Shown here: piece after piece, positions 2,868 through 21,975 of the stretch
How positions within the stretch are numbered: the stretch's first letter is position 1
Layout: the number at the start of each line of letters is the position of its first letter
NCBI GenBank assembly: GCA_000827325.1
Contig: KN832871.1
Span: 248,001-312,000, forward strand
Direction of reading: 5' to 3'
From: Oidiodendron maius Zn
Lineage: Eukaryota > Ascomycota > Leotiomycetes > Myxotrichaceae
Length of the DNA: 64,000 nucleotides
The notes under the pieces: generated by a model
The model's database searches: none
What the model saw: the letters and a program-made list of their open reading frames with translations, nothing else
Told to the model about the DNA's origin: nothing
Made by a program: the position numbers and the translations under genes

Positions 2868-3868
2868 AATGTTGGAACTCACGAAACGTACATAATCATC
2901 ATCACTCGAGGAAAAGTTCTTATGGCATCTACATTGCATGGTGTTGGGGATCTCCGGGGGGCAATGTCTCCCCATGCTTTCAATCCGTTCTTTGGTACCG
3001 TCGTGCCTTTTTATACTTGTCACGTGGGGCCGCGATGCACACTTTTGGCGTTGCTTCCATTTCAATCACTCATTTCTTGCCAATTTTCTTGTATCTTCAT
3101 ACCCCAGCACAGAGCGCTACAGACAGCGATTCTTGTTTATTTGTCTTCTAAATACCCCCTATAGACTGCAGAATTAAATCGAGAAAGGGCAGAAGCTGCT
3201 TCACAGCAACCAATTTTTTCCTTTGTCCATTTCCTGACAGCAGGCCTTATCGGCCGGTGAGGGACATATTGTTCTATTAGGCAGAGATTTGTTTTTACAT
3301 GTACAATTCCGAAAGCTCAGATTGATCTAGCTGTATGGGTGAGCGGGATGGGCTACTCTTGTAACGGTACTAATAATTGAGTTTGGGGGATTCTTGACGT
3401 CACACCAGCCTGTGCAGGCACACATGTATCTTGGGATGTATTTAGAGGGAAGATCCAAATCCAAATATGGCACAACGCCTGATTTCATTAACCTTGTTCT
3501 CTATGCAATTGGTGAATTGTATTGGTGAATTGTGATATATTACATTTGTATGCTCAAGCGACCATCGACTCTCGCAGATCTTACTAGTCTTATGGTAAGG
3601 ATACGGGTCTACAGTATATGAATTATATGTCTCATGGCCCACCTAAAATACAAATAGGAAAGGCACGTAAACATGCAGTTGTGTGGTTGGGCCTCGCTGG
3701 CATGAGCCAGAAAGGTGCATGCATGCATTGGGTTAAAGCAATACGACAACCGCAGCTTCAAATTCTATATCAAAGCTCTCATTAACTGTCACACCCCCCT
3801 TCCCTCCTCCACTCCCTTCCCAAATTCCTCGTCGCACTTCGCTCATAGTCCTTAATCCACCGTACTCC
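2868..3868. other. Intergenic: kinase 3' region and Dicer-like 5' region
   Basis: About 1 kb between two + strand genes. No recognisable gene. The open frames are short and of random composition. A terminator for the kinase and a promoter for the Dicer-like gene must lie here, but I cannot locate specific sites. Confidence 0.5.
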
Positions 3869-6800
3869 ATGTCCTCCTCCTCCTCTTCATCTCCATCCCC
3901 ATCTCCTTCACTCAACCCCACCACCCTTGCCCCACACACAAACGCGTGCACGATCGACCCCACTAGCCCTCCTCTAAACGTCACAGAACTGGAAAATGCA
4001 TCCTCTAGTCCCAAAACCAGGCCGAGACGGTATCAGTTGGAGATGTTGGAGGAGAGTTTGAAGCACAATATTATTGTCGCGGTGAGTTTTTATCGTTTTG
4101 GTGGGGAGGGTCTTGGACATGAAGCTGACACTTTGTGAATTCGCCGATAGATGGATACGGGGAGCGGAAAGACACATATGTGAGTCTAATTCTATTCATT
4201 TATTGGCTTGATATTTGTGTTAGAGTGGTCTCTGCCCTTCGTCTAACCTCGCTCCTATATGCTGGTCGTAATGATATTTTGAACTTTTTATGCGTTTATT
4301 AGAGTGATGAGCATTGTATCCCGAAAACTATAAATTATGAACCTGTTGATTGTAAATTGTTTGAAGTAGTGCTGTCGAAAGTACGTTGTACTAAATACAC
4401 TCTTATTATAGTGCTGCCCTACGTATCCTCCACGAGCTTGAGAGAGCGCCCTGTGATCAGGTTCGAATACCATAGATCATAAGATTATCACTAAACTAGA
4501 TAGTTTGTCTGGTTCCTAGCACCAACGGTCTTCCTCTCTGCTCGCAACAGTTCGAGTATCTCCAGGCACAGCTCACCGCAGTTCAGGTAAAGTTCTTAAG
4601 CGGTAATGACGGGGTTGATCGCTGTAGGTGCATCACATTTCACATCAGGAAATGAGTCGTCTCTCTCTCCGGAAGTCTAGTCAGGTGCATATATGCGTTA
4701 CTGATTCTCATAGGGACCTTACAGAGCCTCTGGGATGCTGTTCTCCAGAATGTGAAGGTGGTCGTGTCAACATATCAGATACTCCTGGACGCACTGAGCC
4801 ACGCATTCGTTCGTATGGAATCAATATCTCTCATTGTGTTCGATGAAGGTTAGTGGTCTTCTCCTTGCATCTCTCGTAATACTCTTGGCAAGTACTAAAC
4901 TCACAAGCCCACAACTGTGTTGGCCGACACCCAGGCGCGAAGATAATGACAAACTTTTACCACGAGAGAAGGCAAAGGGTTCTAAGTGTGCCTTGCATAC
5001 TGGGACTCACAGCCAGCCCTGTCATGAGATCTGATCCACAGTCCCTAGTTAAAATTGAAGAAACTTTGGACGCGATATGTCGAACTCCTACGAAACACCG
5101 AGAAGAATTGAGGCTTCAAGTAAACTTACCAGTCTTATCACATGTTTACTACAAAGCCTCACCACCTGAGAGCTCGTTCTCTGGTTATACGAGAACAATT
5201 ACAAGCCTTGGCCAGGCATTTGGGCGTCTCAGGATTGAAGATGATCCGTATGTCATGGATCTCCTTAGTCAAGGCACAGAGAAGAGCCTCCGGAAACTAG
5301 AGAAAGTGCGACTGAATCACAAAACCTGGTGCCAACAGCAAATAAAGACTCTTCATGCAACCGGCCTCAAGATCTATCAAGAACTAGGCGCTTGGGCTGC
5401 GGATTACTATGTGTCGAGTGTGGTAACCAAGTTCATGACCATGGCGAACGACGAAAATAACTCTCAAGGAGTCTGGGATACCTTAAGCGCCGAGAAGCGG
5501 TATCTGGCTATGGTGCTAAAGGGTGTCGAGATCATAGATCCTGTGCATAGCTATCAGGAGACCCCACTGGTTTCCGACAAAGTCTCACAACTAATAGAGA
5601 CTATCCTCGCCGACGGCTCCGGATTCTCGGGCATCATTTTTGTTCAAGATCGAGCGCTTGTTGCAGTCCTTGCCCACCTCCTGTCCATTCACCCTTCTAC
5701 CCGCAATCGAGTAAAAGTTGGGACCATGATTGGCGCATCTATGTCTCCATTCCGACGCAACATCGGAGAGTTGGTGGATGTCGACCTGCAAAAGCAATCG
5801 CTCTCCCTCTTCAAATCCGGAGTCCTTAATCTCATTGTGGCAACTTCCGTACTGGAGGAAGGTATTGATGTTCCAGCTTGCAATTTGGTCATTTGCTTTC
5901 ATAAACCCGCAAATCTGAAATCGTTCGTACAGCGGCGGGGCCGTGCAAGGCATCAAGAGTCAAGGCTAATCCTGATGATGGACTCCCAGGTAGATAAGCT
6001 AACTGAGTGGGAAAGCCTCGAGCGACACATGAAAGCGTTCTATGAAGAAGAGATGCGCGTGCTTCAAGAGGTTTTGCAGCTCGAGGATAGTGAAGAGCAT
6101 GACCATAGGAAGTTCCGGGTCGAAAGCACAGGAGCGCTTTTGGACCTAGACAACGCGGTGCAACACTTGTATCACTTCTGTAGCACCCTGCCTGCTAAAG
6201 AATACGCAGACCTCACGCCGGAATTCATATGCTCTGAGGCCGGCCCAACGCATGTCAAAGCCAGAGTTATCCTCCCTCTTTCAGTCAACGACGCCGTACG
6301 CACTGCAGAGAGTCGAAGCGCCTGGATGAGCGAGAAAAACGCAATCAAAGACTGTGCATTCGAAGCGTATATCGCACTATACAAAGCGGGACTAGTCAAT
6401 CAACACCTATTACCTCTCCTCAGACAGGATTCTCTCTTGAATGAGCTGATATCCTCCCCCGTGGAAACTCGAGCTTCCATCATGGTAGTCCACAAACAAC
6501 TAAACCCATGGACTGATATTGCCAAAGCTTGGGATTCTCCTCACGATATCCATCAATACATAATACAATTTGGCGACCTGAAAGTTTGTTCATATCTCCC
6601 AATAATTTTACCATCAATAGCACCGTTTATATTGTACTGGGATTTGGATTCAGAAATCTCACTGCAAATGCAAAGACAGAATGTCATAACAGGCATGCAT
6701 ACAATTTCGAGAGCATGCGAAGAAACTTTATCCATGCTTGAGATTGCATTTGGCAGTAGATTTCTTATTGAACAGAAACAACCCATTATGCTGTTCGTCT

Positions 6801-8670
6801 CGATGGGGGACAGAAGCCTGAGAGGTCAAATGGGCCATAGGCCAGTCCTTAGCTCTCAGTCATCTTACAATGGGTTCATTAGAGATACTGTGAACAACAC
6901 ACCGTATCACTTTAGCCAATGGCTTGCGGAGAAACCACATATAGAGATGGTGCAGAAGCCTTACAAGGAATATATGGATGTGCCACAAGACACTCCCCAT
7001 CTGTCACTTACCCGCATATCTCGACGGAAGGACTTCCTCCACAAGATTCCAAGTAAAATGTCTCGCATTTCAACAAAACCATACGCTGTGGTCCTGCCGA
7101 CTTCCAGGTGTACTGTTGATGATTTTCCTGTTGAATATGCGCAATTCGCTCTGACTATTCCTTCAATTATGCGACGTGTAGAGGTCTACATACTCGCACA
7201 GCTGTTAGGCACTACCATACTTCGAGATGTTGGCATAAAGGACGTTGGCTTGATACTAAGTGCGATAAGTGCGTCAAGTGCACGAGAAGAGACAAATTAT
7301 CAGCGCCTAGAATTCTTTGGAGACATGACGCTGAAATTTTGCACATCGGTACAACTAGTGTCCAAATATCCCCTATGGCATGAAGGCTATCTCTCGGCCC
7401 AGAAAGACCGTTTGGTGGCCAACTCGCGATTGTCAAGGGCTGCTGTGGAAGTAGGATTAGACCGGTTCATACTGACAAAAGCATTCACAGGTCACAAATG
7501 GCGACCACTTTATGTCGATGACTTGCTTAATGAGCCAATAGAGGCCCAGAGAGACATGTCATCGAAAGTGCTTGCTGATGTTGTCGAGGCACTAATCGGC
7601 GCCGCCATGCTCGATGGAGGGTTCCCAGCAGCACTTGCTTGTCTCCGGATTTTCCTTCCGGAGATCGACTGGCAGCCTCTAGAGGTGAGACAGGTCTCAC
7701 TATTTGAACGGGTCCCGGATGTGGCGCTACCAGCAACCCTCCACCTATGCGAGGAGCTCTGCGGGTATAGGTTCAGTAAGAAGTCTTTATTAATCGAAGC
7801 TATGACACATGCTTCCTGTAACTCAGGAGCCGGTTCACTGGAGCGTCTGGAGTTCCTTGGAGACGGAGTTCTGGATCGAATCATCACGACTACTCTTTTC
7901 GAGCAGCAGCCACCGCTCTCTCACTTTCAGATGCATGTCATCAGGACCGCACTTGTTAATGCTGACTTTCTGGGTTTCATGTGCATGGAGTGGACGATCA
8001 CCGAAAGGGATGACAGAGATCGTGGAGACTGGCCATGTGGAAGGCGAGGATGAGCCTCACCAGCCGTTCCAAGTTATATATTCCAGAACCTGTCTGCCTC
8101 TGTGGAGGTTCCTCCGGCATCACTCCCCACGACTGGCTGCCGAGCAGGCCGCAACATCTCAACGGCACGCCCAACTACGGGTCCAGATCAAAGCAGAGCT
8201 CGAGGCGGGACGACGCTACCCCTGGGCACTCCTCGCTCGCTTACATGCCCCGAAATTCTACTCAGACATTGTGGAGAGTCTACTGGGGGCTATCTGGGTC
8301 GATTCTGGCTCGCTGGATGCTTGCCAGGATGTCCTTGAAGGGATCGGGGCCCTGCCGTACCTGAGAAGACTCGTCGCTGATGGCGTGCAGGCATGGCACC
8401 CCAAAGAGGAGATTGGCGTTTTGGCTGGTAACCTCCCAGTGCAATATGTGGTGGAGGCGCAGAAGAGCGGCGCCGTGGACGACGACAAGCGAGAGTTCAC
8501 CTGCAGCGTGTTGATGGGCGAGACGGTCGTCGTGCGCGTGGGGGGTGGTGTGAGCAGTGAGGAGGTCAAGACTCGGGGCCGATACTGCGGTGCGTGCGCT
8601 GGCCAGGCCCAGCATCAACGGCAGGCACATCACACGGGAGAGCGAGCTGGAGATGGAAGGTCTAGAATGA
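3869..8670 (+). pseudogene. Dicer-like protein 2, three frameshifts
   Basis: Clear homology to fungal Dicer-like 2, the RNase III enzyme that makes small RNAs from dsRNA in quelling and antiviral defence. Exons read as 3869-4081, 4151-4179, 4412-4460, 4504-4623, 4714-4848 and 4908 onward. Helicase motifs are MDTGSGKTH, FLAPT and FDEAHNC (across a splice). The C-terminal helicase half has EEGIDVPACN and QRRGRARH. A Dicer dimerisation domain and two RNase III domains follow (LEFFGD with DVVEALIGA; LEFLGD with DIVESLLGA). There is no PAZ domain, as usual in this family. Three breaks interrupt it: +2 bases near 4531-4541, between FLAPT and the next helicase sequence, with a stop at 4588-4590 in the old frame; +1 near 8001-8010, with a stop at 8051-8053; +1 in a GGGG run at 8575-8578. 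Homology resumes in the new frame each time and ends at 8668-8670. Catalytic acidic residues look kept, which suggests recent decay. Sequencing error is the alternative. Confidence 0.85.
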
Positions 8671-9870
8671 TGGCCACCCTGTGCTTGTCGGGGAGATGTG
8701 CCCTCCGCACCACGTTGGGCGGAACGGGGGACAACGGAAGACGGACAGTACCTCCTGGTACCTCAGGACCTCAGGAACGCCCATCCCATGTCCCAGCAAA
8801 AAGGGAAGTGCTCCGACGGCTTTGACATCTGACCGCCTCCCTGTCTCACAGAGACTCGCGTGCTTAGCCGGTGCACGCTGACGTCGAGAGGCCGTCTATG
8901 TGCGTCATTGTCCCACCTGGGCGCCCATCAGGAGGGTACGCTTCGTTGGCGTGTTTTGGGATTTGGATTTTATGGCTCTCCCTCTTGGCTCCTGCCAGCG
9001 AGATTGGTGGCCCCGCCTCCTCTCAAGCAAGAGCTGTCGTGGGTGGCGGGCGTCAGATCCCTCCTCGACAGAAGCGGCCGTCTGGTATCTCGACGCGCCG
9101 GCCACCCAAGGCTGCTGCTCTTTGGTCGTAGAGGGAAAGGCAGGTACATGGATCTGGCACCAGAGGAAATGGCCTCCACTCCATCTGGAGCTCCCCTTGT
9201 TCTCTGAACGGTTTGCATTTCCCCACCGGCCATCCACGTAGCCCACACAAAAACAAACATCGCGGGCAAGGCCTGAGGAAGTCGAGAAGGGTTGATCTGG
9301 AGGGCATCGATGGAGGGCATCGACCGCCCTCCGACGAGAGCGTATATAATAGCACCGCAAGCGAATCTCCATCCCATCCCACTGTATCGTAGGCCCGACT
9401 CGGACATGCTGCTATCTGCGGTGGTGCTACTGCTCGTCCTGGAGTAAAATTGTCAGGCGTCATCCCAAACACTGCTTGCTGGCGGCTGCTACCACCTCGC
9501 AATTTCTCATTATTTCATTTTCGTCCTCCGCCCTTTGCCTTTGGGCAGAACACCACAAACCCACCACGCAACCCCCTCTCACCCACCACTCTTGAGACGT
9601 CCCAGTTGTCGTCTAGATCGTGTATCTACCGACCTCTGCCCACCCGGCCAGGTCGTCATTCACCGCCTCTCTGCCTCTACTCTCCCCCTCGGGCGGCCAC
9701 GCTTTTTGGGCTCGTCAAAATAAGACGCCCCAGTAAATTTCCCCCATCTGCAGTCTGCAACCACCCAAATCTGCAATCGCCGCCGCAGTCTGCCTGCCGC
9801 CATCATTACCCTCTGGCCACGCTCCTGGGCTTCACCGCGACTACGGATCCCCGAGTGAGACCTATCCACC
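8671..9870. other. Intergenic: Dicer-like 3' region and YPD1 promoter
   Basis: About 1.2 kb. Several overlapping open frames of 110-150 codons occur on both strands, but they overlap each other and match no family I recognise, so I read them as chance. A 12-base sequence (ggagggcatcga) is directly repeated at 9299-9310 and 9312-9323, just before a TATA-like element. Confidence 0.5.
9343..9350 (+). promoter_or_regulatory. TATA-like element upstream of YPD1 homologue
   Basis: The sequence tatataat lies about 520 bases before the YPD1 start codon. It is followed by long C/T-rich tracts that would form the 5' leader. The role is inferred from position and composition only. Confidence 0.3.
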
Positions 9871-10536
9871 ATGCCGGAGCCAACACGACATGAAGCTGAG
9901 GACAGGGTGAGCCGGACCCTCCCGTCTATCCCCTTCCCCGGGGCTGAGCAGGTGGCTTTTTGCTGCTGGCACGCCCAAAAAAAATAAGTACATACTTATA
10001 CTGACGGAGCTGATGCGCATAGCAACAGAGCGAAGACGGTTCCATCGGCCTCCCTGACCTGGGCGACAGCATCGATGTGACGACGTTTGAGCAGATCTTG
10101 GAGATGGATGACGAGGAGGAGGGGCACGCGTTCAGCCGGTCCATTGTCTTCAGTTTCTTTGAGCAAGCCGAGCAGACCTTCACCAAGATGGACGACGCCC
10201 TGTAAGTCGACTTGCAATTTGACAGCTGCAATTCCACCTTCGGAGAAAATTGCATAGGCTAATAGTTTCATCTGGCTGTGCAGAAATGAGAGAGACTTGC
10301 CTGAGCTGTCCTCGCTTGGGCACTTCCTGAAGGGCTCATCGGCCACACTGGGCCTCACCAAGGTCAGAGACAGTTGCGAGAAGATCCAGCACTTCGGGCA
10401 GAAGAAGGACGAGGCGGGTACAACTGACGAGCCCGACGAGGCCAAGTGCCTCGCGCAGATCAAAGAGACGCTGGCCGCCGTCAAGGAGGAGTATGCCGAG
10501 GTCGAGAAGGTACTGAAGAAGTTCTACGAGCCTTGA
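9871..10536 (+). CDS. YPD1: Ypd1-type histidine phosphotransfer protein
   Basis: Three exons, 9871-9906, 10023-10201 and 10284-10536, encode 155 residues, the usual size for the family. The HPt signature is LGHFLKGSSATLG, with the phospho-accepting His near residue 85. An acidic N-terminal stretch precedes it and a helical C-terminus follows. Ypd1 relays phosphate from hybrid histidine kinases to the response regulators Ssk1 and Skn7, controlling the HOG osmotic and oxidative stress pathway in cytoplasm and nucleus. The start is chosen because ATG at 9871 is in a good context (ccaccATG) and splices in phase to the conserved body. Filamentous fungi usually carry one such protein, so loss would be expected to be severe. 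Confidence 0.93.
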
Positions 10537-19720: not shown

Positions 19721-21975
19721 CTAGTGGAACTCAGCCTCCACACGACCGTATCTGTACCCATCGACTTTCAACTCAAACGCCAGCCCCGCACTCTCCACCA
19801 CCATCTCCAGGGTGAAGTCTAGATTATCGAATTCCACACCTCGTGTCGTTGTCAACCTCGTGAATAAACTTTTCGGAACAGCACCAAGGTCTGTCGTAAG
19901 TGTGCAAACATTGATGAGATCCTTGGTGTAAGAGGAAGGCGGATCTCCGTCAGCATCCGAAGCAATCAGGTCATCAGATACGATCTAGATAGCATATGTG
20001 AACTTTGGCATGTCATATTGGACTGGGGGGAGCCATACCAGTGACTGTCCGGGCCGAAAATTTCGTGTATAATGGAAGCTCACAGGCGTAGCTGCACTAA
20101 GAGCTTCTCCCTATGGCAAAGTTAGCGCAGTCAAAATAAATTTGGAACTTTGAGCCTCACTTTGGCAATGTGCCACTGCATTCTATCACTAACCATCCAT
20201 CGCTCCCACAAGGGGCTCCAGTATCGCTCACTGACTTGATGCTTATCTTCATCATAGACCGTTGCATATGATGTACCGTAGTGCATTCTCGCTTTACGAG
20301 AAATCACCATACTCCCTTCCAGGCCCCTTAACACAGCACCTCGCACGACGGCTGTCCATGCATTGACAGGCTGCATGACTTCGACAGAGCCATTTTCGAT
20401 CAAGCTATTCGCTTGTGCATGCGTTGGTCTCTCACTATAAGGAGGCGGTGCTGCAGTATTAAAGTGTGCTTTCAACCGTGTGTAAAGGTAGTTGCTTTGG
20501 CCGAACCCCCCCACAAGGACTATGCCTGATACTATCCCGCCCTTCTTCCTTATGCCATCGACCTGGCCCTGTACTAGATCACACACTTCCTTGATGACAG
20601 GTTCAAATATCTCCTTGACTTGTGCAGCAGTCATAACCAGGAATCCACTGTCTAGGCCGGCTTCTTCGTCATCCGGTAAACCGGGAAATGGCACATTGAC
20701 CTCTGCATGTTCCGCCTCGTTGAAGTTGCGCTTAACAAACTCTTCCCAATATCGCAAGCCCATTTGCCAGCTCTTGCTCTTCTTCATCTTCAGCTCCTCG
20801 AAGCGTTCTGCTCCGATACGCCCTCTTACATGCTCTTCGAACCGGTAGTTGAGGAAAGCGCTGCCGCAGAGCCCGCCGGTTCCGACTGCAGATTCTTCAA
20901 CCCGCAAAGGCTTCAACGAGATGATCTTATATGCTATCAGGTCCACAGTCCCTCCTCCAGCGTCGCAGACAACAAAATTATCGCCAGGACTTAGATGATT
21001 GGGCTGTATAGCTTTGAGAGTATAGACTGCAGCTGCTTCAGGTTCACTGATCATCTGTATCTCCGATTTTGCGCCCATTCCAGCCCTTTCAGCCGCTTGT
21101 AGGGTAGTATTCTTTGCGGCATCGGACCAGACAGCTGGGCATGTTAGGACAAAATCCACTTTTGTTGAGGCCATAAATGATTCGCCATAACGCCTCGTGA
21201 GTGTCTCTATGGTGTGATTGTATACTTGGGTCAAGTAGTCACTGACGGCATCTACGACATTTTTATTGTACTTCTTCAGCTGCGCAGCTGTCTCCAACGG
21301 ACTCACATAGAACGGCAGCTTCTGTGACCGGTCGAGAAACAGTTTGATGCATCGAAGGCGGGATTCTTCAGGTCGGAACTGGAAACCCCACTTGATATTA
21401 GGATCTGCCCCACTGGGAGCATTTGGAGTGAAGTCGTATGCGATTTCCGTAGGAACTTTGTCTGAAGTAATTCCATTCCCACCTGGCCAAGTCTTGATTA
21501 TCTCAACATCGTCGGGTGTTGAGGTGTATACGGCAGCCACGCTATTTGCTAGTCAGCAACAAGTATGTGTCGAAACAAGAGCTCAAGGATGCATATTTGA
21601 GAACAGGTTGACTGGGTATTGCAGACGCAATACCATGCGATACATAATTTCTAAACGGTTTGCAGTTGGCGGAGAGAAAGGCACCAGCCCTAACGCCGCT
21701 TTTGCGCCTCTAACCGGCAGCAGTTCGAATGGAGGGGTTTTGTAAATCCCTAGGGCGGGGTACTTGCTTGTGGCGGCGATCTATAAAAGTTCCACTTACC
21801 CTGAGTACGTAGTGCCAAAGTCAAGTCCGACAATTAATCGATCATTGGGAGGCGCTGGTTCTCGAACAGGGCCTGCAATCGCCTCAGTGGATGAGGGAGG
21901 AGTGTAGTTCATGAAATGAGCCCTACTTTGCTGATTACGTCCGGCTTTTGTGCTGACAGGAGGGTTGAGACTCAT
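19721..21975 (-). CDS. Atypical Hsp70-family ATPase, HSPA12-like
   Basis: Minus-strand exons 21975-21800, 21541-20161, 20110-20039 and 19984-19721 give 630 residues. The Hsp70/actin-fold ATPase signatures are present: GLDFGTTYSG near residue 50 (completed by the first splice), VVCDAGGGTVDL for phosphate 2, and GIVLVGGFGQSNYL for the adenosine site. The region after the ATPase domain is short and does not resemble the usual DnaK peptide-binding domain. A proline-rich tail of about 50 residues precedes the first motif. This architecture is that of the expanded fungal Hsp70-like group related to animal HSPA12, not the cytosolic Ssa or Ssb chaperones. Function is uncertain. It is divergent from the RCC1-like gene. 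Confidence 0.85.

What the first reader, a model, noticed from the sequence alone, without database searches (positions are those of the whole stretch)
3869..8670. A Dicer-like 2 gene broken by three separate frameshifts
Seen: homology to Dicer-like 2 continues across the whole length, but it changes frame at about 4531-4541 (+2), 8001-8010 (+1) and 8575-8578 (+1). No intron of plausible size resolves the changes. The only gt...ag pair at the first break is 23 bases. Known: this enzyme is the main antiviral Dicer in several fungi, and some lineages have lost RNAi. Inference: the gene decayed recently, since the acidic RNase III residues and splice sites are still good, and the 20-odd neighbouring genes have no such breaks.
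Basis: partly seen in the sequence, partly recalled or inferred. Interest (0 to 1): 0.75.

Follow-up and report, generated by a model that had tools for sequence, protein, structure and literature searches.

The report
Broken Dicer and Argonaute gene pair
In this fungal genome the gene for one of two RNA-silencing Dicer enzymes is broken, and so, it appears, is one of the two Argonaute genes, while the other silencing genes look intact, so one arm of its RNA-based defence may have been lost recently.

Summary
The Dicer-like gene at 3869-8670 is real and single-copy. Break 2 (about 8000-8016) is well supported: the second RNase III domain is split between two reading frames. Break 1 (about 4531-4545, helicase motif Ia) has positional support. 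Break 3 (about 8575) is not confirmed by any test here. The claim that no intron could resolve the breaks is too strong: a weak 97-base GT-AG pair spans break 2, and a 51-base one bypasses break 1 but loses motif Ia.

The searches found two Dicers, two Argonautes and three RNA-dependent RNA polymerases. Five of these seven genes are open after splicing (24 introns). The two damaged ones are this Dicer and the Argonaute that best matches Neurospora QDE-2, which has an in-frame TAA and an intron junction whose frame is off by one.

Best explanation: recent parallel decay of the DCL2/QDE-2 (quelling and antiviral) arm, with the DCL1, second-Argonaute and RdRP genes kept. This mirrors Aspergillus nidulans, where DCL-1 and SMS-2 orthologues are reported truncated. 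Sequence error or missed introns remain possible; no reads, transcripts or sister species were available.

The parts
3869..4081 (+). first coding exon (MSSSSSS...), ends before a GTGAGT donor
   Evidence: no Pfam hit
4151..4179 (+). exon 2, Walker A motif (MDTGSGKTH)
4412..4460 (+). exon 3
4504..4623 (+). exon 4, contains break 1 (about 4531-4545): FVWFLAPTV and CSQQFEYLQAQL are in different frames
4453..4503 (+). alternative 51-base GT-AG pair that would keep exon 3 in frame with the downstream part of exon 4 but lose motif Ia
   Evidence: score 9.25; introns taken as real score 6.75-14.5
4714..4848 (+). exon 5, up to the DExD box (VFDE)
   Evidence: weak DEAD match, E 0.0058
4908..8008 (+). 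long exon in one frame: rest of helicase, Dicer dimerisation domain, RNase IIIa, first half of RNase IIIb
   Evidence: Pfam; PDB
8000..8016 (+). break 2: frame change inside RNase IIIb
7990..8086 (+). weak candidate intron (GTGGAC...TTCCAG, 97 bases) that would connect the two frames
   Evidence: score 8.5, reached at 23% of 360 random positions
8017..8578 (+). second half of RNase IIIb and C-terminal part, in another frame (open frame 7806-8822)
   Evidence: Pfam RNase III 53-102
8575..8670 (+). proposed break 3 and C-terminal tail; not confirmed

Best explanation
The locus is the fungus's only Dicer-like 2 gene. It has recently become a pseudogene through at least one, probably two, small frame-changing lesions (a third is possible) that split RNase IIIb and helicase motif Ia. 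Its presumed partner, the QDE-2-type Argonaute on contig C3, has decayed in parallel: an in-frame stop between the L1 and PAZ regions and a frame mismatch at the intron before the MID region. DCL1, the second Argonaute and the three RdRPs, including a QDE-1 type, are kept. The inferred result is loss of the vegetative quelling and antiviral arm with the DCL1 arm retained. Shown: split frames, one copy found of each broken gene, open partner genes. Inferred: loss of protein function, recency, and which process is lost.
For: Split RNase IIIb. One copy found. Two Dicers, two Argonautes, three RdRPs found. The MID-Piwi piece of the C3 Argonaute best matches Neurospora QDE-2 (E 2e-99), whereas QDE-2 gives the two weakest of 26 matches of a 122-residue piece of the C7 Argonaute. 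In the QDE-2-type gene the frame is interrupted by TAA, and its strongest intron at the next junction (score 12.25) leaves the frame off by one, the in-phase alternative scoring 2.75 against 6.75-14.5 for 24 introns taken as real. Open genes: C7 Argonaute 1,024 aa with 13 introns; DCL1 1,835 aa with 4, one RdRP 1,427 aa with 3, the QDE-1 type 1,352 codons with 1; the third RdRP 1,231 aa with 3. If five lesions fell at random by coding length, all five in these two genes has probability 0.0012; two extra lesions both in QDE-2, 0.015.
Against: No reads, transcripts or sister species. Break 1 rests largely on recalled motifs and could be bypassed by a 51-base intron of ordinary length and score (9.25). 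A weak 97-base intron could connect break 2; its length is not odd for this gene, whose own five introns are 43, 59, 69, 90 and 232 bases. Break 3 is unconfirmed. The QDE-2 stop could lie in a 60- or 81-base GT-AG pair (scores 7.75 and 10.0; reached at 26% and 12% of 360 random positions), though either would remove VTH, which is aligned to AGO10; a 30-base pair scores 6.25. The five-lesion probability counts unconfirmed break 3 as real, and the coding lengths of the two broken genes are my estimates.
Confidence: 0.57

Rival explanations
1. Sequence or assembly error: the genes are intact in the organism and the assembly carries local indel errors.
For: All three claimed DCL2 breaks lie in short runs (read); runs of N elsewhere suggest a gapped draft. 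No read data.
Against: Five other RNAi genes, about 20.3 kb of coding sequence as counted, are open; at the 95% upper limit of that error rate, three or more in DCL2 has probability 0.027. One QDE-2 lesion is a stop codon, not an indel. In four protein families no neighbouring pieces of one gene lie closer than 31 bases except in one HSP70-like gene (judged from coordinates only; in-frame stops inside 14 of their 59 matches were not examined).
Confidence: 0.2
2. Missed or unusual introns: the genes are expressed intact, or nearly so, by splicing that the consensus rules do not favour.
For: In-phase GT-AG pairs exist: 4453-4503 (9.25), 7990-8086 (8.5), and in QDE-2 60- and 81-base pairs (7.75, 10.0). 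The introns of DCL2 itself (43, 59, 69, 90, 232 bases) are less uniform than those of the other genes, so 97 bases is not out of range.
Against: Random positions reach scores of 8.5 (break 2 type) or 7.75 and 10.0 (stop type) in 23%, 26% and 12% of 360 trials, so such pairs are expected by chance; the 4453-4503, 60- and 81-base pairs would remove conserved residues; the QDE-2 junction has only a 2.75-scoring alternative.
Confidence: 0.15
3. Only DCL2 has decayed; the QDE-2 signs are misread and the Argonaute works with DCL1.
For: In N. crassa DCL-1 and DCL-2 are redundant against one virus while QDE-2 is needed (passages of PMC7648066), so DCL2 alone can be lost at little cost.
Against: Two independent signs in QDE-2.
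Confidence: 0.08

Closest known systems
Aspergillus nidulans truncated RNAi genes
   Same: Paired loss of one Dicer and one Argonaute while another pair is kept (stated in a Discussion passage of PMC4182546; the original paper was asked for and is not held).
   Different: There the DCL-1 and SMS-2 orthologues are truncated and the QDE-1 orthologue is degenerate; here the QDE-2 type and the other Dicer are damaged and the QDE-1 type is open.
Cryphonectria parasitica rdr4 pseudogene
   Same: One RNAi gene with premature stops beside intact paralogues (passages of PMC4182546).
   Different: It is an RdRP, and DCL2 and AGL2 work in that fungus (abstract in the listings).
RNAi loss in Ustilago maydis and Cryptococcus deuterogattii
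   Same: Loss of Dicer and Argonaute genes (passages of PMC7763443).
   Different: There the core set is listed as lost; here five of the seven genes found are open after splicing and the two damaged ones are still nearly full length.

Membership tests
Fungal Dicer-like (DCL2 type) | Helicase C, Dicer dimerisation and RNase IIIa domains | tested here: met
Fungal Dicer-like (DCL2 type) | complete RNase IIIb in the same frame | tested here: not met
   halves in two frames
Fungal Dicer-like (DCL2 type) | orthology to DCL2 rather than DCL1 | not tested
   no relatives could be fetched; inferred because the other Dicer (C8) has a long N-terminal part and a DSRM_2 domain, DCL1 features by recall
Fungal Dicer-like (DCL2 type) | C-terminal dsRNA-binding-like helix | tested here: inconclusive
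QDE-2 Argonaute (contig C3) | closest solved relative is QDE-2 | tested here: met
QDE-2 Argonaute (contig C3) | one open frame after splicing | tested here: not met
   TAA and frame mismatch
Pseudogene | disabling lesions in the only copy found | tested here: met
   (given a correct assembly)
Pseudogene | relaxed selection or no functional transcript | not testable with these tools
   no relatives, reads or RNA

The most novel reading that the evidence does not exclude
This fungus has lost the vegetative quelling and antiviral arm of RNAi by parallel recent decay of both DCL2 and QDE-2, while keeping the DCL1, second-Argonaute and RdRP genes (including a QDE-1 type): the mirror image of A. nidulans, and a natural case in which meiotic silencing would persist without the mitotic arm.
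Probability: 0.48. Interest if true: 0.7.

Novelty: new variant of a known kind. Interest (0 to 1): 0.55.

Why it matters
If true, it shows that the two RNAi arms of filamentous fungi can be lost separately in either direction, and that a Dicer and its Argonaute decay together. It predicts a strain with little vegetative siRNA, more open to mycoviruses, and still able to silence during sex; the siRNA predictions can be tested by small-RNA sequencing.

Tried and rejected
Looked for relatives of the Dicer in genome contigs and viral contigs: none confirmed. Codon-usage scoring of frames was too weak, and seven of the training stretches were out of frame, so it is not used. Pfam with the short pieces around breaks 1 and 3 and PDB with the left piece of break 1 gave nothing useful, as did a PDB search of the QDE-2 piece just after the stop. 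A second copy of the Dicer: not found. A hidden second QDE-2: only a short degraded fragment on C1. The HSP70-like gene on C1 was looked at as a control and itself looks decayed. Literature: six searches listed no paper that I recognised as a fungal DCL2 plus QDE-2 pseudogene pair; passages of five papers were seen (PMC7763443, PMC7648066, PMC5923508, PMC4290597, PMC4182546), the rest only as listings. The intron count was corrected from 22 to 24.

Full report
What was checked. The window lies on contig C2 of a 45.9-Mb genome in 58 contigs. The open frame 4880-8050 (1,057 codons) holds Helicase_C, the Dicer dimerisation domain and two RNase III stretches and matches solved Dicers. DNA of 7600-8700 was found once in the genome, and the protein has one full-length match; the next best is the second Dicer on C8.

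Gene model. Exons were placed by eye and translated one by one: 3869-4081, 4151-4179, 4412-4460, 4504-4623, 4714-4848 and 4908 onwards. Introns start GTGAGT, GTGAGT, GTTCGA, GTAGGT and GTTAGT and are 69, 232, 43, 90 and 59 bases long. The phases agree apart from the change inside exon 4. The Walker A, DExD and RNase III acidic motifs can be read directly in the sequence.

Break 2. Comparison with DCL1 of the same genome places the first acidic motif of RNase IIIb (7835) and the following segment (7946-7999) in one frame, and the second acidic motif (8247) in another; 0 of 200 shuffled motifs reach each of these scores. Pfam RNase III positions 53-102 are found in that second frame. A 97-base GT-AG pair, 7990-8086, could connect the frames. 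It scores 8.5, against 6.75-14.5 for 24 introns taken as real (23 from the spliced genes, one from QDE-2), and 23% of 360 random positions have a pair at least as good. Of those 24 introns 22 are 44-56 bases long, but DCL2's own introns are more varied, so length does not exclude it. I judge it a chance match, not firmly.

Break 1. WFLAPTVFL (4510) and CSQQFEYLQAQL (4539) lie in different frames. They are tied best of 3,610 and third of 3,310 windows for the matching DCL1 segments and sit at the expected place, but shuffled motifs do as well gene-wide, so this is positional support and the rest is recalled motif knowledge. A 51-base intron (4453-4503, score 9.25, ordinary in both respects) would keep the frame open and lose motif Ia, so break 1 alone need not stop translation.

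Break 3. No test supports it. The gene may simply end in a different C-terminus.

The rest of the pathway. The searches found two Dicers, two Argonaute genes and three RdRPs. Splicing in scripts gives open frames for the C7 Argonaute (13 introns, 1,024 aa), DCL1 (4, 1,835 aa), one RdRP (3, 1,427 aa), the QDE-1 type (1, 1,352 codons from position 2031 of L024, minus strand, not from an ATG) and the third RdRP (3, 1,231 aa): 24 introns in five genes.

The QDE-2-type gene. The MID-Piwi piece of the C3 Argonaute has Neurospora QDE-2 as its best solved match (E 2e-99), whereas QDE-2 gives the two weakest of 26 matches of a 122-residue piece of the C7 Argonaute. Two signs of damage appear. First, an in-frame TAA at L020 minus-strand 3846-3848 (C3:1318152-1318154), shortly after a stretch aligned to argonaute 10 through VTH. 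In-phase GT-AG pairs of 60 and 81 bases exist (scores 7.75 and 10.0) but would remove VTH, and 26% and 12% of 360 random positions have as good a pair; a 30-base pair scores 6.25. Second, the intron at 4392-4441 (50 bases, score 12.25) leaves the frame off by one, and the in-phase alternatives score at most 2.75. The 509-codon MID-Piwi part is open. The Piwi search found no other copy; a protein search found, besides the gene itself and the C7 gene, only a 30-residue fragment on C1.

Controls. Coding length in the five open genes was counted as 20.3 kb. If five lesions fell at random over the seven genes, all five in DCL2 and QDE-2 has probability 0.0012; given those in DCL2, two more both in QDE-2 has probability 0.015. 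With the 95% upper error rate from the open genes, three or more errors in DCL2 has probability 0.027. The coding lengths of DCL2 (4,314) and QDE-2 (2,873) in that sum are my estimates, and it counts all five lesions as real, though break 3 is unconfirmed. In four protein families (19, 21, 13 and 6 matches; for Sugar_tr only 9 of 559 candidates were scored), neighbouring pieces of one gene are at least 31 bases apart except in one HSP70-like gene on C1. This was judged from coordinates, not sequence, and it speaks to frame changes only: 14 of these 59 matches (2, 6, 5 and 1) hold stops that were not examined, though many such stops lie in introns in the genes I did examine. In the window, 20 ORFs were scanned and 14 had a Pfam family; they were not examined for breaks one by one.

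Mechanism. In N. crassa DCL-1 and DCL-2 act redundantly against one virus and QDE-2 is needed; two other viruses showed no such effect; quelling uses QDE-1, QDE-2, QDE-3 and the Dicers (passages of PMC7648066). In Sclerotinia single dicer mutants are unaffected and the double mutant is debilitated (abstract and passages of PMC5923508). In C. parasitica DCL2 and AGL2 are the antiviral pair (abstract of PMC4182546 in the listings). So DCL2 alone could be lost at little cost, but loss of QDE-2 too would be expected to end the vegetative arm. The kept genes resemble those listed for meiotic silencing (DCL1, SAD-1 to -5, SMS-2; table in PMC7763443), although SMS-2 and SAD-1 identity was not tested here by a tree.

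Comparison with what is known. PMC4182546 states that A. nidulans DCL-1 and SMS-2 orthologues are truncated and its QDE-1 orthologue degenerate, and describes its own rdr4 pseudogene (passages). The present case is the opposite pair. Six literature searches listed no DCL2 plus QDE-2 pseudogene pair that I recognised; most papers of subscription journals are missing from that library.

Verdict. The Dicer gene is broken in this assembly with good support at one place and fair support at another. The more telling result lies outside the window: its presumed Argonaute partner is damaged too. Parallel decay is the best reading at about 0.57; reads and RNA-seq would settle it.

Noticed in passing
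L025 (C1:4253210-4254808, minus): An HSP70-like gene with stops and overlapping frames, diverged; looks like an old pseudogene or a fast-evolving paralogue.
   Followed up: partly
L029:1648-1736 (C1 about 2491647-2491735): Two short collinear fragments (46 of 55 and 22 of 25 bases identical) of the QDE-2-type gene, with no long open frame there: perhaps a relic of a second QDE-2-like copy.
   Followed up: partly
window 7800-10000: G+C rises from about 50% to about 60% near break 2 and stays high downstream; the step roughly coincides with the frame change and is unexplained.
   Followed up: no
window 20134-21552 (minus): A 473-codon open frame with a weak HSP70 match (E 7.5e-10), a distant HSP70-like ATPase.
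   Followed up: no
L024 (C1:3772952-3774430, minus): QDE-1-type RdRP (E 7.5e-141 to 5fsw, named QDE-1), open apart from one intron.
   Followed up: yes
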